Virus record (IMG/VR): IMGVR_UViG_3300021425_003044
Location: 1-64,000 of that record
From: a virus
Strand: one strand, 5' to 3'
Length of the DNA stretch: 64,000 nt
Part shown: positions 10,237 to 50,907 of the stretch, piece by piece
Position numbering within the stretch: the first letter of the stretch is position 1
Layout of the letters: each line of letters starts with the position of its first letter
Translations under genes and position numbers: made by a program
Notes under the pieces: model-generated
Told to the model about the DNA's origin: nothing
Database searches by the model: none
The model's input: only the letters and a program-made list of their open reading frames with translations

Positions 10237-10725
10237 ATGGCTAGATATTTTTCGACTAAAACATATGGCAATGATCGTGGCTTGAGTTGTTGCTTTAGAC
10301 AGTGGCGAGCTACACATTCACATTGCAGTTTATTACACGGTTATTCAATTGGTGTCAAATTAATTTTTGAATGTGAAGAGCTAGATGAACGCAATTGGGT
10401 AATGGATTTTGGAGGATTAAAGGAATTTAAAAATTGGTTAGAACATATGTTTGATCATACTGTGCTTGTAGCAGAAGATGATCCAAAGCTAGATTTGTTC
10501 AAACAATTAAATAGCATGGATGACGGATATAATGCAAAAGGTATTTGTGATCTTAGGATTGTACCTGGAGTAGGCTGTGAAAAATTTGCAGAGCTTTGCT
10601 ATAAGAAAATGGCAGAACTTTTAGAAGAAGACAAGAAAGCTACTCGAGCACTTAATCCTACAGTCCGACTAAAATCTGTAGAAGTATTTGAACACGGAGC
10701 TAATAGTGCAATTTACCAAGGCTAA
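10237..10725 (+). CDS. queD: 6-carboxytetrahydropterin synthase-like protein (QueD/PTPS family)
   Basis: QueD makes 6-carboxytetrahydropterin, an early step towards queuosine and 7-deazaguanine bases. The 162-residue protein has the family zinc/active-site region THSHCSLLHGYSI (26-38), MDFGGLKEFKNWL (56-68), the DHTVL element with catalytic Asp-His (73-77) and a C-terminal VEVFEHG. The usual HGH pair that holds zinc reads HGY here (Y36), so one ligand may be changed; I remember the same in cyanophage homologues. With the DpdA-like gene at 62121 it suggests modified phage DNA. It heads the operon running to 14750. Confidence 0.82.
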   Translation: MARYFSTKTYGNDRGLSCCFRQWRATHSHCSLLHGYSIGVKLIFECEELDERNWVMDFGGLKEFKNWLEHMFDHTVLVAEDDPKLDLFKQLNSMDDGYNAKGICDLRIVPGVGCEKFAELCYKKMAELLEEDKKATRALNPTVRLKSVEVFEHGANSAIYQG

Positions 10726-16528: not shown

Positions 16529-16903
16529 ATGTCATTTGTAATTATCACAGATAAAGCAAAAGAAAAAATTAATCAATTGTGCAAAGAAAATAATGTATAT
16601 GCCATAACCTTAAATTTAAAAGGCGGTGGTTGTGCAGGATATCAATACGACTGGGGAGTAACTGATACTCCAACAAGACATGATGAAGTTATCAGCACAG
16701 GAGATGGAAATTTAGCAATAGGTAAAAAAAGTATGTTATTTTTAATGGGTACAGAAATAGATTATATAACCAGTATAGTAGGATCTAATTTTGACATACG
16801 AAATCCAAATGCAAAATCCAGTTGTGGTTGTGGTACCAGTGTAAGCTTTGATGTTAGTACCTTACCAACAGAGAAAAAACCAGTGTTTACGCCAACCTGG
16901 TAA
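16529..16903 (+). CDS. A-type iron-sulfur carrier (IscA/ErpA-like)
   Basis: A-type carriers bind iron or an Fe-S cluster through three cysteines and pass it to client proteins. The 124-residue protein has exactly this pattern: C35 in LKGGGCAGYQY and C99/C101 in SSCGCGTS, with the conserved KGGGCAG and FDIRNPNAKSSCGCG context. A C-terminal extension of about 15 residues (LPTEKKPVFTPTW) is unusual. It sits behind a late promoter and directly before a 2496-residue fibre gene, so it is made late, with the virion. Possible clients in this window are the ferredoxin or a metal-binding tail protein; that is inference. Confidence 0.82.
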   Translation: MSFVIITDKAKEKINQLCKENNVYAITLNLKGGGCAGYQYDWGVTDTPTRHDEVISTGDGNLAIGKKSMLFLMGTEIDYITSIVGSNFDIRNPNAKSSCGCGTSVSFDVSTLPTEKKPVFTPTW

Positions 16904-32800: not shown

Positions 32801-35635
32801 GTTACTGCCGCAGACGCACCTGTGGGAATGACCAGTGGAGAATTCTTATTCGTTGGTAGTGTTACACAAAATACATTTACATTACATGAGGCAAGAGGAT
32901 CTGCATTAAGCAGCACAAACGGCTTAGTTGTAGCTTCCCAAAATTATTTGTCAGCAGGTACAGGTGATATAATAATCCGTAAACAAACAGTTATAATTAT
33001 AGGAGATGCAAATACTAGTGGACAGTTAGAAACAAGTTGGAGTAACTTAACAACCACTACAATTGATGCTTCAAATATAATAAGTGGAATTATCGATCCG
33101 GCCAGATTAGGAACAGGAGCTGCAAATAACAGTACATATCTTCGAGGAGATAATTCTTGGCAGTATGCAGTTGCAGGTTTAACAAACACAACATTAAATG
33201 ATCCTATTACACTTACTGGCAATTTTTATAATGACGGTTTAAAAAACATATATTATGGTAACATTGATATCAAAGTTGAAAAGGCAAGTTATTTAAATCC
33301 TACAGCACCTATAGCTAACGAAGAAACATTAGGTGTAGCAGCATTTGCGTATGATTATTTTACAATTGGGAATAATGGTTTAGTAACAACAAAGCTCACT
33401 ACAGACGGTGGAAAAATAGATGCTCTTTATCTGTCACAACAACCTGCAAGCTATTACAGAAATCCTGTTAATTTATCACGAGATGTTCCTATAGAGCACG
33501 GCGGAACCAATAGGTCAACTTACACACAAGGTGATATCCTGTATGCAGAAACAGACTTACCAGTTGGAAACGCTTATTCATCAAGTTTACAAGTACTACC
33601 GATTGGAAATGAGCATGATGTAATGGTTGTTAACGGGACAGGACATCCGTCTTGGACTGGTAATTTGATCTTAAACGGAGCTACCATTGCAGATATACAG
33701 ATAGGAATAACAAATTCAAACGAAATAGATACTACAGTCGGCAATTTACTTTTAGATTCATTTACTGGTGAAACAGTAATTGATGATAATTTAACTGTCA
33801 CTGGAGATTTAACAGTCCAAGGAACTACAACAACATTAAACACTACTACTTTGGACGTAGAAGATCTAAACATTACAGTTGCAAAGGGGGCTGCAGATGC
33901 TACAGCAGCAGATGGTGCAGGTTTAACTGTTGATGTAGGTACAAACAATCCTGTAATTGCCAATCCCACAATTACTTATACAAGCACTGACGATCGTTGG
34001 AATATCAATAAAACATTCAGCGCAGGATCAAATACCTTTGTTTCAACAGCCACTGTAGGTTTTGTAGGGAACGCAACTTCCGCTGATAAGTGGGCAACTG
34101 CTAGAACAGTAACATTCCAAGACAATGGTGCCTCAGTCACTGGTGTAACAGGTTCATTCACAATAGACGGAAGTGCAAATGTTAATAATGTAGTGCTAAC
34201 ATTAGTAGATGAGCAAGTACAAGACATTGTAGGAGCAATGGTTAGCAGTAATTCAGAAAGTGGTATAGCGGTAACTTACAACGATACTTCCGGAACCTTA
34301 AATTTCGACGTTGAAGATCCAACAATAACTATAAGCGGATCAGTTTCAGGTTCAGCTCAAATGATAAATTTAGCAAATGTTGAAATTAGTGTATCTCCTG
34401 TCGCTGATGCAGTTACGCTAGGAACACACACAACTGGAAACTACGTAGCAACTGTAGGAATTGGAGAAGTAGATAGCACTGCTGGGTTAACATTAACAGG
34501 AGCAGCAGGAGAAGGAACAGCCGTTACACTTAGCCATGCAGATACAAGCAGCCAAGCAAGTACTACCAATGCCAGTCTAAATGTTATACAGAATGTAACT
34601 GTTGACACATACGGACATGTAACGGGTCTAAGTTCAATAAACGTAGAAATCGGGCTTAGTGGTATAACTTCAGTAGGAGCAAGTACTACAGATGCAATTA
34701 CTGTAGGTGGACTTACAACCACTGCTAATTTAGTAATCGATGGTGGAGATGCTGCACAGGATACATCAATAGGGTCGTTGATTTGGCGTTCAAACAATTC
34801 TGTTGCATCTGACTTTGATTATGCCTATATAGATACCATAATAACAAACAAAGGCACTACTGCTGAAGCTGGTAATTTACGATTTTATGCAAGTTCCAGT
34901 AGTTCTGCAGCATTAAGCTTTTACGCAACATCAACCACGTTAGAACCAGGAAGTACTAATTCAATAGATTTAGGAGCGCAGACTAACGTATGGGCAAATT
35001 TACACATTACTACTGTAAATGCAGTCAATGTAAATGCAAGCGGTGGAGTAGTTACTAGTGGATTGACTGCTACATCAACTACAAATTTAAATGGAGATGT
35101 CAATTTAGGCGATCAAACTACTGATACAATTACATTTAATGGTAGGATAGATAGTGATGTACTTCCAAGCACTAACAATACTAGAAGCTTAGGGTCATCA
35201 AGCCTTACTTGGAATACTATTTATGCAGGAGTATTTGCAGGAACTGCTACAAAAGCACAATATGCTGACTTAGCTGAAATGTATGCCGCAGACGACCATT
35301 ATACTCCAGGAACTGTAATGATGTTTGGAGGAGATAAAGAAGTTACTGCTGCAAAAGGATTAGGAACAACAAAAGTAATTGGGGTTGTCTCTACTGATCC
35401 TGCATATTTAATGAACAGTGAACTTGACGATGGTACTGCAATTGCACTAAAAGGCCGTGTTCCATGCTTGGTAATTGGAAAAGTAGAAAAGGGAGACATG
35501 TTAATTGCTAGTGATACAGCAGGAGTAGCAATAGCAACAAAAGAATTTATAGGCGGCGCTATAATAGGTAAAGCAATAGAAGCTAGCAATGATACGGAAA
35601 TCAAAGTTATTGAAATTGCCGTTGGTGTTTTATAA
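26870..35635 (+). CDS. giant virion adhesion protein (2921 residues), paralogue of the 2496-residue protein
   Basis: This is the longest gene in the window. It starts MAKRFPLVVDTENNNRIIELP, a different N-terminus from its neighbours, followed by small fibre repeats (FLDLEDINDGEANTYLKTDG type, three copies before residue 150). From about 380 a beta-helix region begins (VYVSSIYGSDENDG). Three modules start with CRRD/CHRD at C460, C601 and C760, each followed by IDA/IDS and a DLxYGG-like element. Further on are beta-sandwich-like repeats with GDxVEYDANGD and TYYVKVIDPNTIQVY, and fibre repeats. The C-terminal 130 residues (YADLAEMYAADD...VIGVVSTDPAYLMN...GRVPCLVIGK) match the end of the protein at 16921. 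Probably a long tail fibre or baseplate spike. Confidence 0.75.
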   Translation: MAKRFPLVVDTENNNRIIELPIDDCLDLTGSDICSVENITVTGTITLPTGSVTSFTGNYSDLADAPFIPTSFLDLEDINDGEANTYLKTDGAGNFSFRPLSMSYLNLTDVPAIPTSLTDLQISDGSDGQYLRTDGNGNFTFQNISDISFGNLIIDNNTISNSTLNQPIILQPNGVGSVTIASNTSLIIPVGDSNTRSPNLQGAIRFNTDGNVFEGYNGTGWASLGGVRSLDGETYVLAESAPGAGDDKLLFYTDGVLRLEITNNEVNFNDALTVNIDTLSVTNLQLEQSLDLSGDVSLGDSADDTLTLYAKVDGDIIPKINDTFTIGSKDFNWRNLFVSERAFINDFELPLTDGSKNQIMSTNGEGQLNFKSPDLWGGNRVYVSSIYGSDENDGITAPVKSIKKAIQIAGSMVFEPLTLDETIEFETSNLRLQKESIADATIKFIADTYGSSFGYDTIKCRRDMSLVIDAVLLDQALGTNYNQVTAANSFLRANATYTSQNESARTVIALNELISQITNLNIWSTALTDITTGINQVKTYIDTQDPNTINPLNYPIPSVLPTPNALEAHLRIGGNLLFIQDEITAWIAENYPALVYDSTKCRRDISYIIDALKHDILYGGNYGSITNAKAYFVGTAGQLGVGQETATADAYVHMAEIVTKVVLGQTISPTTGNNTAQDLTGSNATKTEALRLKELIGIIIDVINDNSIDNITRIIMPSNSWTDIRRKDATNIIKENEYEIKNNVINHINVTENLYDSIKCHRDVQEIIDSVIYDLRYGGNSRTVTAGESYYDANNNLYITGQVTETQAAISYAKTLALNYVTGTRATALSASMDLINDIITDKTNAPAKVFGDYKIKNITVMIATGDYIEDNPLIVPDNVSIIGDNLRRAIIRPKNANRDMLRVRNSVYATGIVFRDHLDATGTPDYTFRYCVSFDNPLDTATSRAGYGDLPVTRPKIFTSPYIQNCSIISFLGGNGVEIDGNLVDVPNIPPTNIEAENPVDLADGIPEQGKSMVANAFTILSFGGNAWRVINDAYAQIVSCFVIFCENGCLTQNGGYLSITNSASNFGLFSLRSTGYSQNSFIYDRGYIFKQFEVEGFQTFGVLGLKRAPLEHYVLRLKDNLGSNDVTDSYLFNEQNNLVFAEAIDPDITNVSGNQITFPQAHNFLTGDYVEYDANGDAEIVGLLNEVKYYVSVPNPTSIILYHDEDFGKPVRTLDASVCTGTHYFRKGDEYVYVEEVLETHNTYQDWQLPITEGGQTVNYGIVVGNFFSATNTSGKTIFAGVAGWDFANKVMTVSIELVTEGTNTVRNLGDAGTTIANGPLHSFPGGNITVLSTSPRTDLYTSDFKILTTQNPGIIDIANTVTKQVYFHRPSICNSSAHTWEFAGSGIDYNALPQNGGLTDEFFEQVSTIPGRVYSSGTNEIGDFKVGTFVRAYNRTGNIDFKNKVNIGELDSLSLSLSSGIVVSSISGDIELGDNEIGGPSNSRLITQLAIRSFLENRLGDFIDKQVSSNAIPSSVVQLNSSGQINSDLIPPQGNFTAYIVETFKGRLELHETIPVTDLNAGDIVIEEYDEITLTLTDVVSLVEGETITQTTNFGAGSIIATGVVKQDFTNQTEIKLIEPFTGTFTANVTQNTLSGSTSGPLLDTQTDGIYPLSVAGPVEVRQNYFITTSRAKQYLITDPSQSYTFTQLILDGTQIQGAVSNAVGVIDEYKEGVLTGVDIINDLPGGTGYTPGTYVDVQLVYGPNSGGSTLGEFALADIVVDASGEVTSVDLKRGGYGYAEGELLSVPVNPGDVTLPGASYVPRSAAGIDFEITISNIENRLYLTLDQSAGLEFNANNTNLDFIVDDTDISVTITQGTQFTAGFKGDTTGVDQANDYIIFQAPHPFVNGDHVRYNSNSNPVVPNLVNGDTYYVKVIDPNTIQVYTDYGLQGQNLVNIAGTSGTNNHFFETDSLAIDVDRFYLASHGLSTGDAVKVTAADAPVGMTSGEFLFVGSVTQNTFTLHEARGSALSSTNGLVVASQNYLSAGTGDIIIRKQTVIIIGDANTSGQLETSWSNLTTTTIDASNIISGIIDPARLGTGAANNSTYLRGDNSWQYAVAGLTNTTLNDPITLTGNFYNDGLKNIYYGNIDIKVEKASYLNPTAPIANEETLGVAAFAYDYFTIGNNGLVTTKLTTDGGKIDALYLSQQPASYYRNPVNLSRDVPIEHGGTNRSTYTQGDILYAETDLPVGNAYSSSLQVLPIGNEHDVMVVNGTGHPSWTGNLILNGATIADIQIGITNSNEIDTTVGNLLLDSFTGETVIDDNLTVTGDLTVQGTTTTLNTTTLDVEDLNITVAKGAADATAADGAGLTVDVGTNNPVIANPTITYTSTDDRWNINKTFSAGSNTFVSTATVGFVGNATSADKWATARTVTFQDNGASVTGVTGSFTIDGSANVNNVVLTLVDEQVQDIVGAMVSSNSESGIAVTYNDTSGTLNFDVEDPTITISGSVSGSAQMINLANVEISVSPVADAVTLGTHTTGNYVATVGIGEVDSTAGLTLTGAAGEGTAVTLSHADTSSQASTTNASLNVIQNVTVDTYGHVTGLSSINVEIGLSGITSVGASTTDAITVGGLTTTANLVIDGGDAAQDTSIGSLIWRSNNSVASDFDYAYIDTIITNKGTTAEAGNLRFYASSSSSAALSFYATSTTLEPGSTNSIDLGAQTNVWANLHITTVNAVNVNASGGVVTSGLTATSTTNLNGDVNLGDQTTDTITFNGRIDSDVLPSTNNTRSLGSSSLTWNTIYAGVFAGTATKAQYADLAEMYAADDHYTPGTVMMFGGDKEVTAAKGLGTTKVIGVVSTDPAYLMNSELDDGTAIALKGRVPCLVIGKVEKGDMLIASDTAGVAIATKEFIGGAIIGKAIEASNDTEIKVIEIAVGVL

Positions 35636-38938: not shown

Positions 38939-39496
38939 ATGTCAAGTATAGTTTCAATAGATATAAATGAAAATTTTCCTGTAGCTGGACAGGATAACGA
39001 TAGTCAAGGATTTAGAGATAATTTTAACATCATTAAAAACTCATTAGCAACTGCTAATGCAGAAATTACAATTTTAGAAAATAATACAGCAAAAACCAAC
39101 ACTGACAATAATTTTAACAATAACGAAATTCAAGAAGCAGTTCTTGTGAATACAACGCAAAAAACTACAACACAAGCAACAGCAACTTCTATTCCAATAA
39201 ATTGGACTTTTGGCCAGCACCAAAAAGTAATAGTTTCAGATGATGTTACATTAACTTTGGCATCCTGGCCTGCAAGTGGAACCTATGGTGAAATAATTAT
39301 TACTGTATTAGCCGATGATGTAGAAAGAACTATTTCTTGGGCAGCAACAGAGGGAAATAATATCAAATATACCACAGACGGTTTTTCTCTAAATTTCACT
39401 ACGCAATCTAGTACAAATCCAAAAATCTTTAAATTTTGGTCAATAGATGGAGGTGCAACTGTTTATGCTCAATATTTAGGAGAATTTGTATCTTGA
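38939..39496 (+). CDS. small virion protein with diverged fibre anchor
   Basis: The 185-residue protein begins SIDINENFPVAGQDND...GFRDNFNIIKNSL, a diverged form of the NIG...GDxLRxxFxKxNxNF anchor of the larger fibre proteins. A short helical linker follows, then a beta-sandwich-like C-terminal domain (QHQKVIVSDDVTLTLASWP, GEIIITVLADDVE). It could be a minor fibre or a decoration or attachment protein. Its stop overlaps the TTG start of the next gene. Confidence 0.6.
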   Translation: MSSIVSIDINENFPVAGQDNDSQGFRDNFNIIKNSLATANAEITILENNTAKTNTDNNFNNNEIQEAVLVNTTQKTTTQATATSIPINWTFGQHQKVIVSDDVTLTLASWPASGTYGEIIITVLADDVERTISWAATEGNNIKYTTDGFSLNFTTQSSTNPKIFKFWSIDGGATVYAQYLGEFVS

Positions 39497-39702
39497 CTCA
39501 TCCCTTATCTGGTAATTTATCTGCTTTTACAGATAAAGAATTATATGACAAATATAAAGAATTACAAAATAAATATTGGTCTGTTAGCAACATTTCTGTA
39601 AAACTTCAAATAGAAATGCTATTAGCAGATTATCATTTAGAAATAGAAAATAGAAAAGGAAAAGAAAATAAAGAACTTGACGAGTTAATAAAAGTAGTAT
39701 AA
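39493..39702 (+). CDS. small conserved phage protein, TTG start
   Basis: The TTG at 39493 shares TGA with the preceding stop and has AGGAGA upstream, giving 69 residues L(M)THPLSGNLSAFTDKELYDK. An in-frame ATG at 39436 would give an implausible Cys-rich N-terminus read from the other gene. Helical, with DKELYDKYKELQNKYW and IEMLLADYHLEIENR, it resembles a small protein (HPL...NLS..(D)xEL...Y.EL) that I remember from many T4-like cyanophages. The function is unknown. Confidence 0.6.
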   Translation: MTHPLSGNLSAFTDKELYDKYKELQNKYWSVSNISVKLQIEMLLADYHLEIENRKGKENKELDELIKVV

Positions 39703-39711
39703 AATAACTTT

Positions 39712-40203
39712 ATGTCAGAAAAAACAAAAGAAATAATGCATCTAATGTACTTGAATAATTTCGAAATTCTAAAAAAATTAGAGATTTCGCAAGACATAGA
39801 TGTAAAAAAATATAATAAACATGCATCTAAATTTAATGCGCCTATACTACAATATAAATCAGAACAAGATCTCCCACAAGAACAACAAGATAAAATACTT
39901 CAGAGTGCCTGGCTTATGCCAGCTAAATATAGTTTGATTAACATTGAAGATTTTTTAATTGCAAAATGCAATACAAGAGAAGAACAAATAAGAGTACAGG
40001 AAGAGTTATCAAAATACAAAGATCAGAACTTATTGCCATTATTACAATATATGATATTTCTTGTTGACACATTACGGCAAAATAATATTATCTGGGGTGT
40101 AGGTCGTGGATCAAGTGTATCTAGCTTTGTACTTTATTTAATTGGTATAAATAGAATAAATCCAATAAAATATAATTTAAATTTTCATGAATTTTTAAAA
40201 TAA
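39712..40203 (+). CDS. DnaE-like fragment protein (GRGSS motif)
   Basis: The 163-residue protein ends with LLPLLQYMIFLVDTLRQNN then IIWGVGRGSSVSSFVLYLIG and INPIKYNLNFHEFLK. This is the palm entry segment of bacterial DNA polymerase III alpha, where the pattern is YF.I..D.....N.I.VG.GRGSA..S.V.Y.LGIT.IDP.KY.L.FERFL. In the polymerase the next residues are PDxDxD, which carry the catalytic aspartates; this protein stops exactly before them. It therefore cannot polymerise alone. It is intact, has its own ribosome binding context and sits among late structural genes. A packaged, regulatory or decoy role is possible but unknown. Confidence 0.6.
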   Translation: MSEKTKEIMHLMYLNNFEILKKLEISQDIDVKKYNKHASKFNAPILQYKSEQDLPQEQQDKILQSAWLMPAKYSLINIEDFLIAKCNTREEQIRVQEELSKYKDQNLLPLLQYMIFLVDTLRQNNIIWGVGRGSSVSSFVLYLIGINRINPIKYNLNFHEFLK

Positions 40204-40213
40204 GGGAAAAACA

Positions 40214-40573
40214 ATGGAGAAAAATACAAGAGTAGCAGGCGGTGTATATCTTTCTGCTAAAGGAAAAAAAGTAGATATGGATAGCTTACGCCAACGAAAT
40301 GAGTTAATGCCAGCTGTAGGTAATATTCCCGTAAATGCAAGAGGTGACTTATTAGGGAAAGGCGGAAAAATTATTAAGACCCGAGAAACCATAATGAAAG
40401 AATATTATGAAAAAAGTAAAGGCATGCCCGAAGAACAAATTGAATATCCTCAAGAGATTAAAGTTGAGAATACCATAGATTCTCCACAGAAAAAAAATAA
40501 GAAAAAAGCAGAACTTAACACAGACAAATGGTTAGAAGACGCAGACGGAAATTTTATTCCTAAGGAAGCTTGA
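40214..40573 (+). CDS. conserved hypothetical phage protein
   Basis: This 119-residue basic protein contains KKVDMDSLRQRNELMPAVG and GNIPVNARGDLLGKGGKI, a segment I remember as conserved in marine T4-like phages. A Lys-rich stretch (QKKNKKKAELN, about 89-99) and a final WLEDADGNFIPKEA follow. No enzyme motif is seen. It overlaps the next gene by one base and may be a small structural or DNA-binding protein. Confidence 0.6.
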   Translation: MEKNTRVAGGVYLSAKGKKVDMDSLRQRNELMPAVGNIPVNARGDLLGKGGKIIKTRETIMKEYYEKSKGMPEEQIEYPQEIKVENTIDSPQKKNKKKAELNTDKWLEDADGNFIPKEA

Positions 40574-40815
40574 TGCGTAGATTTTTTGTTTATCATATAA
40601 CAAAAAATTACTGTATAGAATTAGATTTTTTTAAATCTTTTATTTCTTTAGGTTGGTTTGCAATATTAAATTACACAATGGACATTAGATTAAAAGGATC
40701 ACATAAAGGATTTTATTGGTCCTTTTATCTACTAGGTTTTAAAATTTTTGAAATAAACATTTACAATAAAAATCACGAAGAAGGTCGTGTTTACGACCCT
40801 ATAATAGATTATTAA
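40573..40815 (+). CDS. small hydrophobic hypothetical protein
   Basis: Starting at the ATG at 40573, overlapping the previous TGA, gives 80 residues. The protein is aromatic and hydrophobic (FFKSFISLGWFAILNY, FYWSFYLLGFKIF), so membrane contact is possible, but no clean transmembrane helix stands out. A TTG one codon upstream is an alternative start. No family is recognised. Confidence 0.5.
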   Translation: MRRFFVYHITKNYCIELDFFKSFISLGWFAILNYTMDIRLKGSHKGFYWSFYLLGFKIFEINIYNKNHEEGRVYDPIIDY

Positions 40816-40822
40816 AGGATAT

Positions 40823-41167
40823 ATGTACAATACAGTTAAAGGCAATTTAAAACCAGTTAAAGACAAGGTGCTTGTCAGTGAAATGCATTTTGGTGAGCAA
40901 GTCACTGCTGCAGGAATTATCTTACGTGACGACGACGGAAAAACACACGGCATACATCCTAGATGGGGTCGTGTATGGGCAAAAGGACCTACAAATAAGG
41001 AAGATTACGAAGTTGGTGATTGGGTATTAGTTGATCACGGACGCTGGACACATGGGATTAAATTAGAAACAGACACAGGCGAAATTACTGTAAGGATGGT
41101 AGATAATAAAGACATCTTAATGGCAAGTGAAGAAAAACCTGCAGACATTATTACAGGAGTAGAATGA
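40823..41167 (+). CDS. GroES-like co-chaperone (gp31-type)
   Basis: The 114-residue protein follows the Cpn10 pattern: LKPVKDKVLVSEM at the start, a mobile-loop region (HFGEQVTAAGIILRDDDG), GRVWAKGPTNKEDYEVGDWVLVDHGRWT and a final TVRMVDNKDILM. T4 gp31 replaces host GroES so that GroEL can fold the major capsid protein; the phage version here is expected to pair with host GroEL in the same way. It is coupled to a MazG gene by an ATGA overlap. Confidence 0.75.
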   Translation: MYNTVKGNLKPVKDKVLVSEMHFGEQVTAAGIILRDDDGKTHGIHPRWGRVWAKGPTNKEDYEVGDWVLVDHGRWTHGIKLETDTGEITVRMVDNKDILMASEEKPADIITGVE

Positions 41168-41574
41168 GTCAAATTGATTTAAACAAATACAAAGAATTTG
41201 TATCAGCAGTTACTTCAGCAGAAAGTAATGATACAAACGCTATGACAAAACGATTAAACAAAATTGAAAATGAAACTAACGTAAATATGGCACTACTTTT
41301 AACAGGTGCTATTGGACTCTCATCAGAAGGAGGAGAATTTGCAGAAATTGTTAAAAAATGCGTATTCCAAGGCAAGCCACTTGACCAGGATACTAGGTTC
41401 CATATCAAACGAGAACTTGGTGATATACTTTGGTATTGGATTAATAGTGTTCGTGCAATGGGGCTTGACCCGAATTCAGTGATTGAAGAAAATGTAAATA
41501 AACTTAAAGCAAGATATCCAGAGGGTGAGTTCGATGTATACTACAGCGAAAACCGTAAAGAAGGCGATTTATAG
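41164..41574 (+). CDS. mazG: MazG-like nucleotide pyrophosphohydrolase
   Basis: The 136-residue protein has the all-alpha NTP-PPase core: GLSSEGGEFAEIVKK (about 51-65, ExxE metal motif), RELGDILWYW (about 83-92, ExxD) and a final KL.ARYPEGEF typical of phage MazG. These enzymes hydrolyse NTPs or alarmones such as ppGpp. Many marine phages carry one, thought to modulate host metabolism or salvage nucleotides. A second, different family member lies at 42415. Confidence 0.8.
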   Translation: MSQIDLNKYKEFVSAVTSAESNDTNAMTKRLNKIENETNVNMALLLTGAIGLSSEGGEFAEIVKKCVFQGKPLDQDTRFHIKRELGDILWYWINSVRAMGLDPNSVIEENVNKLKARYPEGEFDVYYSENRKEGDL

Positions 41575-41597
41575 TGTTTTATTTTTCATCAAACGCA

Positions 41598-41615
41598 GTC
41601 TGCATTTTAGCAGGC
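41598..41615 (+). other. weak hairpin in the leader of the Bax-inhibitor gene
   Basis: GTCTGC and GCAGGC can pair (6 bp, one wobble) around the loop ATTTTA, in the 79-base leader before the ATG at 41654. No U-run follows, so it is not a terminator. It may be chance, or protect or regulate the mRNA. Confidence 0.25.
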
Positions 41616-41653
41616 GAGATAGCAAAAAGTAAAATTATAAAGGAATAATTGTT

Positions 41654-42343
41654 ATGAACACCCTATTTCAATCTAACGTAAACTCTATTAGACAAACAGA
41701 CGATGCTGGATTACAGCAGTTTATGACTACAATGTATAATCATACAGCCGCAGGATTAGCGGTAAGTGGTTTTACATCTTATATGGTGTATGCTACCGGT
41801 CTTATTAACATATTCCTAAGCGGTATTATGCTTTGGATTACAATGCTAGCTCCGCTCGGCATGATACTGTATTACAGTTTTAAAGGACAGGATTGGGATG
41901 TTTCTGCTATAACCAAATTTTATTACAGTTTTGTAATAGTCATGGGTATTGGAATGAGCAGTGTTTTTGCTGTATTTTCTAGCACCAGTATTGTAGAAGC
42001 ATTCTTAGCAACAGCATTAACATTTGGTGCTGCAAGTGCTTATGGTTATTTTACAAAAAGAGATCTAACCAGTTGGGGTAGCTTTTTAATTGTTGGCCTG
42101 ATTGGCATACTAATAGCTGGTTTAATAAATTTGTTTTTTGGTAGTCCGATGATTTCGTTTGTAATAAGTGTATTAGGTATAATTATCTTTACAGGCCTGA
42201 CAGCTTATGATAGTCAGCAAGCAAAGGAGATCTATCACACCACTGGAGATCCTAAATACGGTGTTCAATTTGCACTTAACTTGTACCTTAATTTTATCAA
42301 CCTTTTCCAAATGATCTTACATCTTATTGGCACTAGAGAATAA
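41654..42343 (+). CDS. Bax inhibitor-1 family membrane protein (YbhL/YccA-like)
   Basis: The 229-residue protein has about seven membrane segments and the BI-1 family signatures. The N-terminal GLQQFMTTMYNHTAAGLAVSG corresponds to bacterial GLRxYMxxVYxxMxxGLxxTG. In the middle, the sixth helix ends in FTGLTAYDSQQAKEIY with D186, and the last helix has ALNLYLNFINLFQMILHLIG. In BsYetJ a pair of aspartates forms the pH latch; the second is Asn here (N213), as in many proteobacterial members. Family members act as calcium or proton leak channels or protease modulators. A phage copy may tune membrane state during infection. It has its own leader and is followed by a terminator hairpin. Confidence 0.85.
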   Translation: MNTLFQSNVNSIRQTDDAGLQQFMTTMYNHTAAGLAVSGFTSYMVYATGLINIFLSGIMLWITMLAPLGMILYYSFKGQDWDVSAITKFYYSFVIVMGIGMSSVFAVFSSTSIVEAFLATALTFGAASAYGYFTKRDLTSWGSFLIVGLIGILIAGLINLFFGSPMISFVISVLGIIIFTGLTAYDSQQAKEIYHTTGDPKYGVQFALNLYLNFINLFQMILHLIGTRE

Positions 42344-42351
42344 TTTAACCA

Positions 42352-42379
42352 TTGACATCCTACTATAGTATGCTATTAT
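42352..42379 (+). promoter_or_regulatory. sigma70-type promoter nested in a palindrome
   Basis: TTGACA (42352-42357), a 16-base spacer and TATTAT (42374-42379), with TGC before the -10. It drives the operon mazG-like - gp44 - ferredoxin - thyX - dCMP deaminase. The palindrome at 42357-42390 covers the spacer and the start site, so it could also be an operator. Confidence 0.75.
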
Positions 42380-42395
42380 TATAGTAGGATTTTTT
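42357..42395 (+). terminator. intrinsic terminator-like hairpin overlapping a promoter
   Basis: ATCCTACTATA (42357-42367) and TATAGTAGGAT (42380-42390) are perfect 11-base inverted repeats around a 12-base loop, followed directly by TTTTT. This is a Rho-independent terminator layout for the Bax-inhibitor gene on the + strand. The loop holds the -10 hexamer of the next promoter. Confidence 0.6.
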
Positions 42396-42414
42396 ATGAC
42401 CACACGGAGACACT

Positions 42415-42693
42415 TTGCAACCTAGCCCTATTAACACACTACAACAATTGATGATTATTACCGCAGAAGAGTGCGGTGAACTTACACAAAGATGTAGCAA
42501 GATCATACGGAAGTATGCTACAATAGAAGAAATAGAAGAAGAGCAAAGACAAAAATTCGTAGAGGAAGCAGGCGATGTGTTGTGCATGCTAGAATTATTA
42601 GTAGCACACAAAATCACCAATTGGAAAGAGCTTAGACATCGTGTATCAATTAAACAGGATAAACTTAAAACTTGGAGTGAGTTAATCAAATGA
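42415..42693 (+). CDS. second MazG-like NTP pyrophosphohydrolase, TTG start
   Basis: Reading from a TTG at 42415 (ribosome binding site CGGAGA) gives 92 residues. The core ITAEECGELTQRCSKIIRKY (about 15-34) and EEAGDVLCMLELLV (about 50-63) supplies the ExxE and ExxD metal residues of all-alpha NTP-PPases. It is shorter than the gene at 41164 and differs in sequence, closer to dUTPase- or MazG-like house-cleaning forms. It is first in the replication and nucleotide operon and overlaps gp44 by 4 bases. Confidence 0.7.
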   Translation: MQPSPINTLQQLMIITAEECGELTQRCSKIIRKYATIEEIEEEQRQKFVEEAGDVLCMLELLVAHKITNWKELRHRVSIKQDKLKTWSELIK

Positions 42694-43604
42694 AAGAACT
42701 TTGGGTAGAAAAATATAGACCTAAGTCTGTAGAAGGATATGTTTTTAGAGATGAAGCACAAAAAAAGCAGATACAACAATGGATTAAAGATCAAAGTATT
42801 CCACATTTGCTTTTTAGTGGGAATGCAGGTATAGGCAAGACAACTTTAGCAAAATTACTGCTAAATGAACTAAATGTGAATGAGTTTGATATCTTAGAAA
42901 TAAATGCAAGTCGTACTAACTTAGTTGACGATGTGAGATTTAAAATTGTAAACTTTGTCCAAATGATTCCTTTTGGAGATTTTAAAGTTGTGCTTTTAGA
43001 CGAAGCAGACTATTTAAGTCATAATGCACAAGCCGCTCTTAGAGGTGTTATGGAGGAATATCATGAGTTTGCTAGATTTATATTAACATGTAATTATCCT
43101 AACAAAATTATTCCTGCTATCCATAGTAGATGCCAAGGATTCCATATTGCTCGGGTAGATCAAACAGAATTCACCGCTAGAGTAGCAGAAATTTTAATTG
43201 CAGAAAATGTAACACCAGATCTCGATATCCTTGATACATACGTCAAAGCTACCTATCCAGATTTACGCAAGTGTATAAATATGGTGCAAATGAATGTACA
43301 GGATAAAAGTCTACTTGCTCCACACGAAAGTGACTCTGGCGAAGCCGACTGGAAACTAGAGATGGTAGATCTTTTCAAAGCAGGTAAAATTGCAGAGGCT
43401 AGAAAGCTACTATGCGGCACAGTCCGTCCTGAGGAAATGGAGGGTATTTATAGATGGCTTTACGAAAATTTAGAATTATTTGGCGATGACGAAAAACAAG
43501 ATTCAGCAGTATTAATTATTAAACAAGGACTAGTTGACCACACATTAGTTGTTGACCCGGAAATTAATCTTGCTGCTGTACTAATTAAATTGAGTAGACT
43601 ATGA
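42690..43604 (+). CDS. 44: sliding clamp loader large subunit (gp44-like, RFC family)
   Basis: The 304-residue AAA+ protein begins [15 protein letters not shown], the RFC box of clamp loaders. It has Walker [10 protein letters not shown] (44-52), Walker [10 protein letters not shown] (101-109), the sensor 1 region ILTCNYP (131-137) and SRCQ (146-149). T4 gp44 forms the ATPase part of the gp44/62 complex that loads the gp45 clamp for replication and late transcription. The gp62 partner is not visible in this window. The downstream ferredoxin overlaps by 4 bases. Confidence 0.9.
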
Positions 43605-43972
43605 CATATATTGTAGATGACAACTGTATTAATTGTAAACACATGGATTGCGTAGAAGTATGTCCAGTAGACTGCTTTTACGAAGGAGAAAATACTTTAG
43701 TGATTAATCCAGACGAATGTATCGACTGCGGAGTATGCCAGCCAGAATGCCCTGTAGATGCAATTTGGCCTGACACCAAAGTTGATCCAGCAAAAAAGCA
43801 ATTTTGGATAGACTTTAACCATAAATGGTCGCAAGAGTGGCCAAATATTACTGTTAAACGAAAAGAAGATGTACCAGCGGATGCAGCGGCATGGGCATAT
43901 CGCCCAAACAAGTTAGAAGAACATTTTTCAGAAAAACCCGGAAAAGGAGATCAACCAAAGGAAGATGAATGA
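43601..43972 (+). CDS. fdxA: 7Fe ferredoxin (FdxA-like)
   Basis: The 123-residue protein has the full cysteine set of a 3Fe-4S/4Fe-4S ferredoxin: C9, C17 and C50 for the 3Fe cluster and C21, C40, C43, C46 for the 4Fe cluster, in [11 protein letters not shown] and [18 protein letters not shown]12 and C25 are additional. The tail ([18 protein letters not shown]) is typical of alphaproteobacterial ferredoxin II. It transfers single electrons. Sitting between gp44 and thyX in an overlapping operon, it may feed reducing power to phage enzymes; which one is unknown. Probably acquired from a host. Confidence 0.88.
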
Positions 43973-44649
43973 AAGTAAGATTAGTTAGTTACTCCCAACC
44001 TGCAGAAGATTTCGCAAAATCAGTAGAAGTATTACCCAATGCACAGGATTTAGTTGCATATTGTGCAAGGGTGTCTAATCCTTCTAATCAGATGAACACT
44101 GAAACAAGCGAACGATTATTAAAATATCTTATTAAGCACAAACATTGGAGTCCGTTTGAAATGGTAAGTGCTTGTTTAGAAATAGAAACTACTAGAGACA
44201 TCGCACACCAAATCGTACGACATCGCAGTTTTGCATTCCAAGAATTTAGTCAGCGATATGCAGATCCAGCTGAATTTGGAGATCAGTTTGTTATTCGCGA
44301 AGCTAGATTACAAGATGACAAAAATAGGCAAAACAGCATTGAAACAGACGATCCGGAATTAGAAGCACATTGGATACATAAGCAGCGAGAAGTTATTGCG
44401 GCTGCCAAAGCAGCATATGAATGGGCTATTGAAAACGGTATTGCTAAAGAGCAAGCACGGGTTGTATTGCCAGAAGGAAATACAAAGACACGCCTTTATA
44501 TGAATGGCAGCCTACGTAGTTGGGTACATTACATTGAATTACGTGGAGCAAATGGGACACAAAAAGAACACATGGAAATTGCCCACGCCTGTGCAAAAGT
44601 TGTAGCAGAAATCTTTCCAAACATAATGAGCTTTGTAGATGAAGGATAA
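43969..44649 (+). CDS. thyX: flavin-dependent thymidylate synthase (ThyX)
   Basis: ThyX makes dTMP from dUMP with FAD and NADPH. The 226-residue protein has the ThyX motif [14 protein letters not shown] (84-97; RHRx7S) and the C-terminal [11 protein letters not shown] region that binds dUMP. Length fits the family (about 220-250). It is coupled to the ferredoxin gene by ATGA and overlaps dCMP deaminase by 11 bases; deaminase and ThyX act in sequence. Confidence 0.92.
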
Positions 44650-45124
44650 ATTTATCCATGCATTTATGGACGTTGCGGAACGTTTTAGCAAATTATCTAG
44701 TGCAAAGCGACTGCAAGTAGGTGCTATTATTGTAAAGGATGATAGGATTATTTCTATTGGTTACAACGGTATGCCTAGCGGATGGGAAAATAATTGCGAA
44801 GCAACTATTTTTGTAACAAAAGCCGAAGCACAAGGCTATGATATGGTTGCTCAGGGCTACACTGAAACTGAAAAAGGTAACTGGACAAGATTAAAAACTC
44901 GGCCAGAAGTATTGCATGCAGAAAGTAATGCCCTTGCTAAACTTGCCCGCAGTAGCGAAAGTGGCGAAGGTGCAACAATGTTTATTACACATCAGCCATG
45001 TTTAGACTGTGCAAAATTAATTTATCAAAGTGGTATTTCTAGAGTATATTTTAAAGAGCCTTATCGGCTTGACACTGGATTAGATTTCTTACAAAAATCT
45101 AATGTTGAAGTATACAAAGTTTAG
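44639..45124 (+). CDS. cd: deoxycytidylate deaminase (dCMP deaminase)
   Basis: It converts dCMP to dUMP, the substrate of ThyX. The 161-residue protein has the zinc site HAE (93-95) and PCLDC (120-124), with an N-terminal KRLQVGAIIVKDDRIISIGYNGMP characteristic of phage dCMP deaminases. T4 Cd is of similar length. It is the last gene of the operon from 42415 and converges with phoH. Confidence 0.9.
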   Translation: MKDKFIHAFMDVAERFSKLSSAKRLQVGAIIVKDDRIISIGYNGMPSGWENNCEATIFVTKAEAQGYDMVAQGYTETEKGNWTRLKTRPEVLHAESNALAKLARSSESGEGATMFITHQPCLDCAKLIYQSGISRVYFKEPYRLDTGLDFLQKSNVEVYKV

Positions 45125-45142
45125 GGGCCTTTCGACCCCCCT
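45123..45142 (+). terminator. possible hairpin between convergent genes
   Basis: AGGGG (45123-45127) can pair with CCCCT (45138-45142) across a 10-base loop. It lies between the ends of the dCMP deaminase and phoH genes, where a two-way terminator would be useful. There is no U-run on either strand, so support is weak. Confidence 0.3.
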
Positions 45143-45156
45143 CCTTAGTTAATGGG

Positions 45157-45879
45157 TTATTCGTCTCCGTAGATAGCTAGTACTTCTTTAACTGCTTCGT
45201 GACGTTCAATGTCACGATGCTCAAAGTTTACTATATCTAACCGGGTTAAATCACGAGTGTACAAATGTTTTATGAATGACACTAAACCATTGTCTGTAAG
45301 TCTATCTGCTTGTGCTAGATCACCAGTAACTACCATCTTAGAACCCTCTCCAATGCGTGTTAATAACATCTTCATTTGATTAGGTGTTGCATTCTGCATT
45401 TCATCTGCTAGAATAAAACTGTTCTTAAATGTCCGTCCTCGCATGTATGCTAGTGGTGCTATTTCTATAATGCCTTCGTCGATCATCATAGTTATTTCTC
45501 TGGCAGTGAAATATTCTCTTATGACATCGAATATAGGTCTAGTCCATGGAGCCATCTTTTGCTCTAGCGTTCCTGGTAAAAATCCTAAGTCTTCATCGAC
45601 GCTAACTGCAGGACGAGTAACAATAATTTTTTCAACCTCACCTTCCTTAAACAGTTTTACAGCGATTTGTACTGCTAATAATGTTTTACCTGTACCAGCT
45701 GGACCTATTCCAAAGACGATGTCTTTATCTTTGTCTAGCAATTTTAACATGTAAGTTTCTTGATTTCTATTACGTGGTAGGACTCTAACTTGACGCTTTT
45801 TCTTATATGCATCAAATTCAACAACGTTATTAGTTGCTTCTTCATATTTCGGCTTGCGAGCCGAACGTCTTGCACCCAT
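45157..45879 (-). CDS. phoH: PhoH-like ATPase
   Basis: The start at 45879 (MGARRSARKPKYEE, 240 residues) has a strong AAGGAGGAAC ribosome binding site on the - strand; the longer frame to 45945 would run through the structured leader. It has Walker A GPAGTGKTLL (59-68), VTRPAVSVDEDLGFLPGTLEQKM and Walker B FILADEMQN, with the following TGD.AQ motif. PhoH is an ATPase related to RNA helicase domains, very common in marine phages; its role is unsettled (phosphate stress or RNA metabolism). It is one of two - strand genes here. Confidence 0.9.
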   Translation of the reverse strand: MGARRSARKPKYEEATNNVVEFDAYKKKRQVRVLPRNRNQETYMLKLLDKDKDIVFGIGPAGTGKTLLAVQIAVKLFKEGEVEKIIVTRPAVSVDEDLGFLPGTLEQKMAPWTRPIFDVIREYFTAREITMMIDEGIIEIAPLAYMRGRTFKNSFILADEMQNATPNQMKMLLTRIGEGSKMVVTGDLAQADRLTDNGLVSFIKHLYTRDLTRLDIVNFEHRDIERHEAVKEVLAIYGDE

Positions 45880-45899
45880 TAAGTTCCTCCTTGTTGGAT

Positions 45900-45940
45900 A
45901 AAAAATAGGGCTTAACCTTAACAGTAAGGCTGTTGCCCTA
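45900..45940 (-). promoter_or_regulatory. structured phoH leader with terminator-like hairpin
   Basis: On the - strand the leader holds TAGGGC (45940-45935), an inner hairpin AACAG-loop-CTGTT (45934-45920) and GCCCTA (45911-45906) followed by TTTTTT (45905-45900). An alternative inner pairing CCTTA/TAAGG excludes the first. The outer stem plus U-run resembles an intrinsic terminator placed 20 bases before the phoH start codon, as in attenuators. Confidence 0.45.
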
Positions 45941-45989
45941 CACAAATATTTAGCTGTATCTTTTAAAGCTAAACTTACCTTAAAATACG

Positions 45990-46009
45990 ATAAATAAAAG
46001 TAATAAATA
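45990..46009 (+). promoter_or_regulatory. two tandem late promoter elements
   Basis: ATAAATA occurs at 45990-45996 (GATAAATAAA) and again at 46003-46009 (AATAAATATA), before the ATG at 46024. The second has the better distance for a start near 46015; the pair is the only tandem case I see. They would drive the two conserved genes and possibly the lysis block. Confidence 0.6.
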
Positions 46010-46023
46010 TAGGATTATCTGAA

Positions 46024-46617
46024 ATGCAAGACATTTATGACGTAATAAAAAACGTAGAAAGAATATATGAAAGTAACACAGGTTTCCAAATCCTAAAAGA
46101 TTTCGAGCGTGTATTAGATGAATTAGACTTATATGTCTATGATAATTGGGAAGACGGTGAATTAGCCGAAGGTCCAATTATAGATAGACATTGGGTAACA
46201 TGTAAATTTTTCTGGGATAGGAATAAAATGCCAGATCCTATGGGAGGTAAGAGATTATTAGATTATGATTGCAAGATTAAGTATCAAAAAACTTATATGC
46301 TCAAACCTAGGAAAATACGCAAACCAGATGACATTAGACCGGGCACAAAAAAAGGGAAACTCGATCGTCGTCCTATTTGGATTGTAAGCATTATGATGCC
46401 TAAAAAATTATTAGCTGATATATATGGTAGCTACAAAGAAAAATGGGATTGGATAACAGATCCTGCAACAGAAGCAACAGCACCTGGTACTGAGCAACCA
46501 GCTGATGACCTAGCAGCAGGCGGAATGCCCGAAGGAATGGATATGGGTGGAGCAGCACCACCTGAAGCTGGAGCAGCACCACCTGAAGCTGGAGCAGCAC
46601 CAGCAGGAGCAGTATAA
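46024..46617 (+). CDS. conserved hypothetical phage protein with Ala/Pro-rich tail
   Basis: The 197-residue protein has an N-terminal helical part, then a conserved-looking core (KMPDPMGGKRLLDYDCKIKY, then MLKPRKIRKPDDIRPGTKKG and RRPIWIVSIMMPKKL). It ends in a low-complexity tail made of AGAAPPE repeats. I recall the core from cyanophage genomes without a function; the late promoters suggest a virion or assembly role. The next gene starts at an overlapping TAATG. Confidence 0.65.
   Translation: MQDIYDVIKNVERIYESNTGFQILKDFERVLDELDLYVYDNWEDGELAEGPIIDRHWVTCKFFWDRNKMPDPMGGKRLLDYDCKIKYQKTYMLKPRKIRKPDDIRPGTKKGKLDRRPIWIVSIMMPKKLLADIYGSYKEKWDWITDPATEATAPGTEQPADDLAAGGMPEGMDMGGAAPPEAGAAPPEAGAAPAGAV
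46549..46602 (+). repeat. 21-base tandem repeat coding AAPPEAG
   Basis: The unit GGAGCAGCACCACCTGAAGCT occurs at 46549 and 46570 and continues as a partial third copy. It encodes the Ala/Pro/Glu/Gly tail of the preceding gene. Such repeats change copy number easily. Confidence 0.8.
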
Positions 46618-49126: not shown

Positions 49127-49618
49127 ATGGGGGCAAATATGGATTTAGCACAACAAGTACAAGGTATGTCACACACTGAGAGTTTTCAGATGCTAGGAAT
49201 GCATCTAACTGACATGATAGTACCTTGGTTAGCAATCTTAATTAGTATAGCAGCAGCATTTTGGTTTAAAGATTTTGCACAAAATCTTGTAGCCGGTATG
49301 GCGTTTAAATATGGTGGCAACTTTCGTGAAGGCGATCAAGTCATCTTAGACGGACACGATGCTATGATTATTAAGATAGGCATGAAGGAAACTGTATTTG
49401 GTAGATACACGGACAAAGGTTACACCTGGCAATATGTACCAAATGAAAAAATTGAATACCACAAATTAGAGAAAATTGTACACAGAGATCTACACTTAGA
49501 TACTGATATAGAAAAAGGGCAACAGATAATGGAGCTGATAGCAAAAGCTCAATCAACATACAAAAAACCATTGGAGGTAAACAAAGATGCCAAGGGCACA
49601 TCCCCTCTCGAAGGATGA
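49127..49618 (+). CDS. MscS-like mini-channel protein
   Basis: The 163-residue protein has one clear membrane helix (about 30-47, MIVPWLAILISIAAAFWF). The pore-helix and beta-domain pattern of mechanosensitive channel MscS follows: KDFAQNLVAGMAFKYGGNF, REGDQVILDGHDAMIIKIGM, and WQYVPNEKI (MscS: N-AAG...F..GD.(I/V)...G....(V/I)..IG, then (I/V)PN..I). The charged C-terminal tail is short. It would be a minimal single-pass MscS core. Lying between spanins and a holin-like gene it may take part in lysis or in osmotic control. An ATG at 49139 is an alternative start. Confidence 0.65.
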   Translation: MGANMDLAQQVQGMSHTESFQMLGMHLTDMIVPWLAILISIAAAFWFKDFAQNLVAGMAFKYGGNFREGDQVILDGHDAMIIKIGMKETVFGRYTDKGYTWQYVPNEKIEYHKLEKIVHRDLHLDTDIEKGQQIMELIAKAQSTYKKPLEVNKDAKGTSPLEG

Positions 49619-50058: not shown

Positions 50059-50907
50059 ATGGACTACTACGATTTACTCGGGGTTAAGCGGTCAGCCTCG
50101 GCAGACGAACTTAAAACCGCTTATAAAAGACAAGCAATGAAAAACCATCCTGACAAGGGTGGCGATCCTGAAAAGTTTAAACAGATAAACGAAGCTTACC
50201 AGGCATTATCTGATCCGCGGCAAAAACAGATGTATGACCAGTTTGGTACAACTGATCCGCAGCAAGCACAGATGAACCAAGGTGGTTTCCATTTTACATC
50301 AGGAGCAGGAGCTGATTTTGAGGACGTATTAAGACATTTTGGATTTGGTGCACATTTTGGCAGAGGTTTTGCTAATCAACAAAGACGAAATAAAGATATA
50401 AAATTAAGATTGTTAATTAATTTAGTTGATATTTTTACAGGAAAAACAGATACAGTAACATATAAACTGCCGAATGGAAAAACTGAAATTATAGATATTA
50501 CAATCCCTCCAGGAATAGAAGATGGAGATGTGGTCAAGTTTTCAGGCTACGGGGACAACAGTTTTCCACAATTTCCGCGTGGAGACTTACTTATTCAAAT
50601 ACAAATAAAACCTGATCCAAATTTTAGACGCGAGGGTAGTAATATTTTTACAAGTATTAAAGTAGACATTTTTGACTTAATTATAGGTTGTCAAAAAGAA
50701 ATTGCTACACCCGATAAAAAGAAAGTAAGTTTAACAATACCTCCAACTACTTTACCTAATACAGTATTTAACATTAGCGGCTACGGCTCTCCTAGCAGAT
50801 CAACCAATCGCAATGGTAACTTGTTAGTAGAAGTAAAGCCAATCATGCCAAAATTAAATAGTAAACAGTTAGAGAGTTTGAAAAATTTTAAGAACAAGAT
50901 TACTTGA
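50059..50907 (+). CDS. DnaJ-type J-domain co-chaperone (CbpA-like)
   Basis: The 282-residue protein starts with a J domain, MDYYDLLGVKRSASADELK, with HPD at 30-32, which stimulates DnaK. A short Gly/Phe-rich linker follows (HFGFGAHFGRGF, about 93-105). The zinc-finger CxxCxGxG repeats of DnaJ are absent. Two C-terminal beta domains are present (DITIPPGIEDGDVVKFSGYG; VSLTIPPTTLPN), as in CbpA or eukaryotic type II. It probably recruits host DnaK for phage protein folding. Its 3' end holds the -35 box of the clpA promoter. Confidence 0.88.
   Translation: MDYYDLLGVKRSASADELKTAYKRQAMKNHPDKGGDPEKFKQINEAYQALSDPRQKQMYDQFGTTDPQQAQMNQGGFHFTSGAGADFEDVLRHFGFGAHFGRGFANQQRRNKDIKLRLLINLVDIFTGKTDTVTYKLPNGKTEIIDITIPPGIEDGDVVKFSGYGDNSFPQFPRGDLLIQIQIKPDPNFRREGSNIFTSIKVDIFDLIIGCQKEIATPDKKKVSLTIPPTTLPNTVFNISGYGSPSRSTNRNGNLLVEVKPIMPKLNSKQLESLKNFKNKIT

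What the first reader, a model, noticed from the sequence alone, without database searches (positions are those of the whole stretch)
41654..42343. Phage-encoded Bax inhibitor-1 family protein
A complete seven-helix BI-1 homologue with D186 in TAYDSQQAKEIY and LYLNFINLFQ is clear. Bacterial members modulate calcium/proton leak or FtsH-type proteolysis. I know of no established role in T4-like phages. Placement before the replication operon suggests expression during takeover, perhaps to delay membrane collapse or block an abortive response.
Basis: partly seen in the sequence, partly recalled or inferred. Interest (0 to 1): 0.7.

Follow-up and report, generated by a model that had tools for sequence, protein, structure and literature searches.

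The report
Jumbo-phage gene for Bax-inhibitor-like membrane protein
A marine giant bacterial virus carries an intact gene for a membrane protein of the Bax inhibitor-1 family; related viruses gain and lose the same gene at one spot in the genome, which suggests an optional tool for managing the host cell during infection.

Summary
In detail: window 41654-42343 (+) encodes a complete 229-aa Bax inhibitor-1 (BI-1/TMBIM) protein (PF01027, E 1.3e-50; predicted fold matches B. subtilis YetJ, Z 18.7). It is not host contamination: a 99% identical copy lies in a second viral contig with the same neighbours, and diverged copies sit in the same slot in 14 of 68 related loci. In five close relatives the slot holds another small gene (four) or nothing (one); matching DNA resumes at the base after the BI-1 stop, or 8 bases on. 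On a clamp-loader tree, presence changes at least 8 times. Phage BI-1s form three phage-only groups (one origin not rejected), under purifying selection (dN/dS about 0.07); the nearest bacterial relatives are alphaproteobacterial, at about 50% identity or less. The phage is a fragment of a jumbo myovirus related to Pseudomonas phage Paride. BI-1 also occurs, unannotated, in the cultured Salicola phage SCTP-2. YetJ's two-aspartate pH latch is not kept (D186, N213), nor is it in E. coli YccA, the FtsH modulator. I favour FtsH modulation (about 0.4) over a pH-gated calcium leak. No function was tested.

The parts
41654..42343 (+). BI-1/TMBIM gene, 229 aa, seven transmembrane helices
41574..42343 (+). 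variable slot: stretch absent from close relatives L163, L165, L166, L167 (different small ORF there) and L164 (82-base spacer); homology resumes at 42344 (42352 in L164)
41633..42343 (+). part shared with L002, where a 104-aa ORF lies between MazG1 and BI-1; taken as the minimal cassette
42352..42379 (+). promoter-like TTGACA-16-TATTAT (11 of 12), also seen at the junction in L163 and L164, so part of the conserved right flank
42357..42390 (+). terminator-like hairpin (14 pairs, 3 G-C) with T-run, overlapping the promoter-like site
41164..41574 (+). MazG-like pyrophosphatase (MazG1), directly upstream
40823..41167 (+). GroES-like / head morphogenesis protein
40214..40573 (+). conserved block gene of unknown function (phrog_14844)
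39712..40203 (+). DNA polymerase-like fragment (phrog_11127)
42415..42693 (+). second MazG-like NTP pyrophosphohydrolase (MazG2)
42690..43604 (+). gp44-like clamp loader, used as synteny anchor
43601..43972 (+). ferredoxin-like protein
43969..44649 (+). thymidylate synthase (ThyX-type label is by eye)
44639..45124 (+). dCMP deaminase
50961..53198 (+). Clp-type ATPase: phage proteostasis gene in the same genome

Best explanation
A jumbo-phage accessory gene for a BI-1/TMBIM inner-membrane protein. Shown by computation: the gene is intact, under purifying selection, phage-borne, and present or absent as a unit at a variable slot. Inferred mechanism: made during infection, it inserts in the host inner membrane, associates with the FtsH-HflKC protease as E. 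coli YccA does, and slows degradation of FtsH substrates such as SecY and newly made phage membrane proteins. This would keep the translocon and membrane working until programmed lysis. The confidence given is for this mechanism; that it is a real phage BI-1 gene I put at about 0.97.
For: Family and fold. Phage-borne, slot-precise presence and absence. Selection: dN/dS 0.067 for window-L002 (2 non-synonymous, 8 synonymous changes), median 0.072 and maximum 0.218 over the 66 pairs with dS between 0.03 and 1.0. FtsH-type modulation is reported for two inner-membrane relatives: E. [quoted passage not shown] PMC7876416, passages). YccA, like the window protein, lacks the two-aspartate latch (E and S at the two positions). 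Precedent: lambda CIII, a phage-encoded FtsH inhibitor (PMC1838920, passages). The phage carries other proteostasis genes: GroES-like and a Clp ATPase.
Against: Only about 25% identity to YccA, and the YccA equivalog model scores 30.3 bits against a cut-off of 353. FtsH binding cannot be read from the sequence. One passage states that ion transport by YccA has not been demonstrated, so the missing dyad is weak evidence either way. The loss of the second Asp is shared with 94 of 150 bacterial relatives, whose function is largely unknown. The gene is absent from most relatives, so it is not needed in general.
Confidence: 0.4

Rival explanations
1. It is an ion (calcium or proton) leak channel or exchanger like YetJ and TMBIM5, adjusting host ion balance or proton-motive force during infection.
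For: Same fold as YetJ; D186, the equivalent of D171, is invariant in 129 of 129 phage rows; camelpox GAAP, a viral relative, forms cation channels (PMC4416878, passages).
Against: The second latch Asp (D195 in YetJ) is Asn in the window and in 97 of 129 phage rows; the position that the phmmer alignment pairs with the TMD2 Arg (R60) is K in the window but A in 75 of 129 phage rows, against R in 96 of 150 bacterial rows (alignment in this loop is uncertain). In viral GAAP the matching D219N change altered conductance, and that residue was needed for protection from apoptosis. A leak without pH gating remains possible.
Confidence: 0.25
2. It protects the infected cell against premature death: it blocks a membrane-acting abortive-infection system or delays membrane collapse before lysis.
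For: Patchy, repeatedly gained or lost distribution (at least 8 changes on the clamp-loader tree) fits a counter-defence role against varying hosts; eukaryotic viruses carry TMBIM proteins with anti-death roles.
Against: The slot's other annotated genes are mostly nucleotide and RNA metabolism genes (3'-5' exoribonuclease-like, MazG, NT5C, cytidylyltransferase-like) rather than known anti-defence genes; no link to any defence system was found, and none was searched for.
Confidence: 0.2
3. It is a captured host gene without a specific infection role: transient cargo that adds to the host's own BI-1.
For: 364 of 385 alphaproteobacterial genomes sampled already have a BI-1 match; many close phages lack the gene.
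Against: Phage-only groups with long internal branches and low dN/dS point to a function long kept in phages.
Confidence: 0.12
4. Host DNA wrongly assembled into a viral contig.
For: None found.
Against: 99% identical copy in the same order in L002; 14 of 68 syntenic loci; BI-1 in records of up to 382 kb, and gp23 or terminase in 9 of 16 BI-1-bearing records; GC 35.7% against 35.1% for the window.
Confidence: 0.01

Closest known systems
Alphaproteobacterial BI-1 family proteins (PF01027)
   Same: Same domain over the whole length; D186, N159 and LYLNF-type motif; up to about 50% identity
   Different: The window's nearest rows on the tree are all phage; MazG lies directly upstream in 57 of 129 phage loci scored but in 0 of 47 bacterial loci scored
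B. subtilis YetJ
   Same: Fold (Z 18.7 over 185 residues); D186 pairs with D171
   Different: N213 in place of D195; 22-24% identity
E. coli YccA (FtsH modulator)
   Same: Family membership of YccA is recalled and from papers; both lack the two-Asp dyad
   Different: 25% identity; equivalog model far below cut-off
Salicola phage SCTP-2 gp332 (ASV44347.1, annotated hypothetical)
   Same: PF01027, 98.7 bits, in a cultured 440-kb phage
   Different: 26% identity; E and S at the dyad positions, as in YccA; other genome position
TMBIM proteins of eukaryotic viruses (poxvirus GAAP, cytomegalovirus US12 family, giant viruses)
   Same: Virus-encoded members of the same fold family (PMC4416878, PMC6163359 and PMC12584671, passages)
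   Different: Eukaryotic hosts; 10-25% identity in the structural search

Membership tests
BI-1/TMBIM (PF01027) | Full-length domain above the curated score | tested here: met
   172.5 bits against 34.1, positions 1-206 of 207
BI-1/TMBIM (PF01027) | Seven transmembrane helices in the YetJ fold | tested here: met
YetJ-type pH-gated channel | Two-aspartate sensor (D171, D195) | tested here: not met
   D186 present, second position is N213
YetJ-type pH-gated channel | Arg in TMD2 (R60) that closes the latch | tested here: inconclusive
   K77 at the aligned position, but the loop alignment is uncertain
YetJ-type pH-gated channel | Calcium flux | not testable with these tools
   No assay possible
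YccA (NF007765, FtsH protease modulator) | Equivalog score above cut-off | tested here: not met
   30.3 against 353 bits; so it may work like YccA but is not filed as YccA
YccA (FtsH modulator) | Binding to and modulation of FtsH/HflKC | not testable with these tools
   No assay possible
Described phage protein family (PHROGs v4) | Match to a PHROG | tested here: not met
   Only a 25-residue match at E 0.046

The most novel reading that the evidence does not exclude
Jumbo phages carry their own lineage of BI-1 proteins, often behind a MazG gene, as an infection-time membrane-proteostasis and anti-death factor. That would be the prokaryotic counterpart of the TMBIM genes of pox-, herpes- and giant viruses, so that viruses of bacteria and of eukaryotes would both have co-opted one family to keep the infected cell's membranes working.
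Probability: 0.25. Interest if true: 0.75.

Novelty: new member of a known kind. Interest (0 to 1): 0.5.

Why it matters
BI-1 is best known as a suppressor of cell death in eukaryotes, and its bacterial role is poorly understood. A phage lineage that keeps gaining and losing it gives a natural test of what the protein does to a bacterial cell. The open question, FtsH modulation or ion leak, can be tested directly, and the cultured phage SCTP-2 has an unannotated member. The gene has no matching PHROG family, and all tblastn matches in the phage collection lie in records without annotation, so annotation pipelines built on these will overlook it.

Tried and rejected
Contamination: rejected. LYLNF as a phage-specific change: rejected, since bacteria share it. 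Paride_0063 as a divergent BI-1: weak profile match in the genome search (E 3.4e-5, below cut-off), but no Pfam match on its own and no profile alignment (probability 0.04%); not counted. Shorter N-terminal tail in phages (median 24 against 35 residues), as in the YccA11 mutant: not used, because bacterial start codons were taken as the longest ORF. Conserved MazG-BI-1 pair: MazG lies directly upstream in 57 of 129 loci (130 loci given), including 14 of 62 from L056-L081 and L256-L292 in other contexts (63 given; many near-copies, e.g. L068-L075), and in 0 of 47 bacterial loci scored (80 given, 33 lost by the ORF picker). But MazG is also present in most slots whether or not BI-1 is there (MazG1 in 41 and the 118-aa MazG-like type in 23 of 73 blocks), so the link is suggestive only. 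Phage-collection matches of BI-1 (6 records with the window protein; 9 with the L065 protein) are unannotated, mostly short records and were not followed. The second look at PDB matches below YetJ gave only background Z.

Papers: searches for the gene in phages were 'bax inhibitor'+bacteriophage+'auxiliary metabolic' (1 paper, on haptophyte viruses, listing only), 'bax inhibitor-1'/phage/YccA, two of three terms (91 papers, 25 listed), 'bax inhibitor'+'jumbo phage' (0), 'bax1-i'+phage (0), 'tmbim'+bacteriophage (6, none on the subject by title), 'bax inhibitor'+'viral genomes'+phages (3) and MazG+phage+'bax inhibitor' (0). Two jumbo-phage overviews hold no mention of Bax, YccA or FtsH (PMC7824862, PMC13282480; term search only). 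PMC10449902 (passages) shows the host FtsH-HflKC complex only. This covers only the open-licence library.

Full report
What is there. Window 41654-42343 (+) is a complete 229-aa ORF. Pfam Bax1-I covers 206 of 207 profile positions at E 1.3e-50. NCBIfam gives only sub-cut-off scores to YccA (30.3 of 353 bits) and MAG0110 (28.4 of 98), and PHROGs gives nothing of weight. phmmer aligns it with YetJ (E 3.1e-10). AlphaFold2 on 37 phage rows gave pLDDT 84.4 and pTM 0.78, with lower confidence (64-78) over about residues 131-180. The ten PDB chains at E <= 0.001 are all YetJ; VIA gives Z 18.7 over 185 residues, the next unrelated entry 7.1.

The genome. The record is a 66,258-base viral fragment. The clamp loader's best cultured matches are Pseudomonas jumbo phages of the PA5oct/Paride group at 56% identity, and the local order (polymerase fragment, unknown, GroES-like, clamp loader, PhoH, two virion proteins, Clp ATPase) is the same in Paride. 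Paride has no BI-1 there.

Distribution. With the window protein, 103 of 105 candidate stretches in the viral collection encode a relative; the best 80 were kept. Six of the records that hold these loci are 116 to 382 kb long. Of 16 BI-1-bearing viral records, 7 have gp23 and 9 terminase, 9 of 16 with either; the other 7 gave neither and may be fragments.

An accessory gene in a variable slot. Anchoring on the clamp loader instead of BI-1 (80 kept of at least 598, chosen by likeness to the window's clamp loader), 68 of the 80 loci had the block intact and 14 of these 68 carry BI-1 (in which Paride is a further block without it). Several of the 80 are near-copies of each other. Against L163, L165, L166 and L167 homology stops at window 41573-41574 and resumes at 42344, the base after the BI-1 stop; against L164 it stops at 41568 and resumes at 42352. 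Three states besides the window's were seen: a 104-106-aa ORF alone (L163, L165, L166, L167), that ORF plus BI-1 (L002), and an 82-base spacer (L164) (junction letters of L165 were not printed). On a clamp-loader DNA tree of 81 rows, with state known for 69 (15 with BI-1, the window included), presence changes at least 8 times, 6 forced by well-supported branches. Ten records from the clade whose loci lacked BI-1, of 58 to 165 kb, had no BI-1 anywhere (0 of 10; the same query rang in 8 of 9 records, the miss being that of L177, which is also among these ten).

Origin. A tree of 46 phage and 60 bacterial representatives (of 128 phage rows plus the window, and 150 bacterial rows) needs three label changes: phage groups of 20 (with the window; SH-aLRT 86), 18 (95) and 8 (91) rows. 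A single phage clade is not rejected (AU p 0.503). Matches occur in 364 of 385 genomes of the class of an Azospirillum genome (Alphaproteobacteria), 77 of 296 of the phylum of a Zunongwangia genome (Bacteroidota) and 328 of 398 of the phylum of the Azospirillum genome (Pseudomonadota); the best E-values are in the alphaproteobacterial set. Highest whole-alignment identity to the window is 47% in bacteria and 60% in phages apart from L002; local alignments reach 51%. The host of this phage is not established.

Selection and residues. Nei-Gojobori dN/dS (own script) has median 0.072 and maximum 0.218 over 66 pairs. D186 is D in 129 of 129 phage rows. Position 213 is N in 97 and D in 32 of 129 phage rows, and N in 94, D in 55 and T in 1 of 150 bacterial rows. 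E. coli YccA and SCTP-2 have E and S at the two positions. In YetJ the two Asp and Arg-60 form the closing latch; the GAAP change D219N, matching position 213, altered conductance, and that residue was essential for protection from apoptosis (PMC4416878, passages). So the YetJ latch in its known form is not kept in the window protein, although this is shared with many bacterial kin.

Expression. A sigma-70-like site (42352-42379) and a hairpin with a T-run (42357-42390) follow the gene and belong to the conserved right flank. The scanned region (39400-46100) had 39 promoter-like sites against 26.8 in shuffles and 6 terminator-like sites against 3.9, so single sites are weak evidence. BI-1 is more likely read with the GroES-MazG side than with the clamp loader; this is inference.

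Reading. Two inner-membrane relatives modulate FtsH-type proteases: YccA and mitochondrial TMBIM5 (PMC9379554 and PMC7876416, passages). Lambda CIII shows that a phage can gain from inhibiting FtsH (PMC1838920, passages). With the two-Asp dyad broken and other proteostasis genes in the genome, I rank FtsH modulation first (0.4), then an ion leak (0.25), anti-death or counter-defence (0.2), and cargo (0.12). All are untested.

Known or new. The family is known, and TMBIM genes are known in eukaryotic viruses (PMC4416878, PMC6163359 and PMC12584671, passages). I found no description in phages in the searches listed under Tried and rejected. In the phage collection the tblastn matches are all in unannotated records, and the SCTP-2 member is annotated as hypothetical. 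Hence: a new member of a known kind, in a new setting.

Noticed in passing
L371:1423-2094 (Salicola phage SCTP-2, 294582-295253): Protein annotated hypothetical (ASV44347.1) is a BI-1 family member with E and S at the YetJ dyad positions, as in YccA.
   Followed up: partly
L163:7339-7659 and equivalents in L002, L165, L166, L167: Alternative slot gene of 104-106 aa that begins like a lipoprotein (by eye) and continues in T/N/S-rich repeats; in L002 it sits beside BI-1.
   Followed up: partly
window 41574-42414 and the same slot in L163-L242: The slot between GroES/MazG and the clamp loader is a hotspot: 44 of 73 blocks hold a 3'-5' exoribonuclease-like gene, 18 an NT5C-like gene, 6 a cytidylyltransferase-like gene, and many hold small proteins that look membrane-bound.
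   Followed up: partly
window 42352-42390: Promoter-like site and a 14-pair hairpin with T-run overlap each other; how both could work is unclear.
   Followed up: no
window 49127-49618: Weak match to the mechanosensitive channel beta-domain (20.1 against a cut-off of 20.2 bits), close to the endolysin and spanin genes.
   Followed up: no
window 16921-24411 and 26870-35635: Two very long ORFs (2496 and 2921 aa), probably tail or fibre proteins (by position only).
   Followed up: no
window 10731-11945, 10237-10725, 3236-4168, 16529-16903: By eye these look like a flavin-dependent halogenase, a QueD-like enzyme, an AIR-synthetase-like enzyme and an iron-sulphur assembly protein; not searched.
   Followed up: no
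window 50059-50907: J-domain-like start (by eye), next to the Clp ATPase: part of a phage proteostasis set with the GroES-like gene.
   Followed up: no
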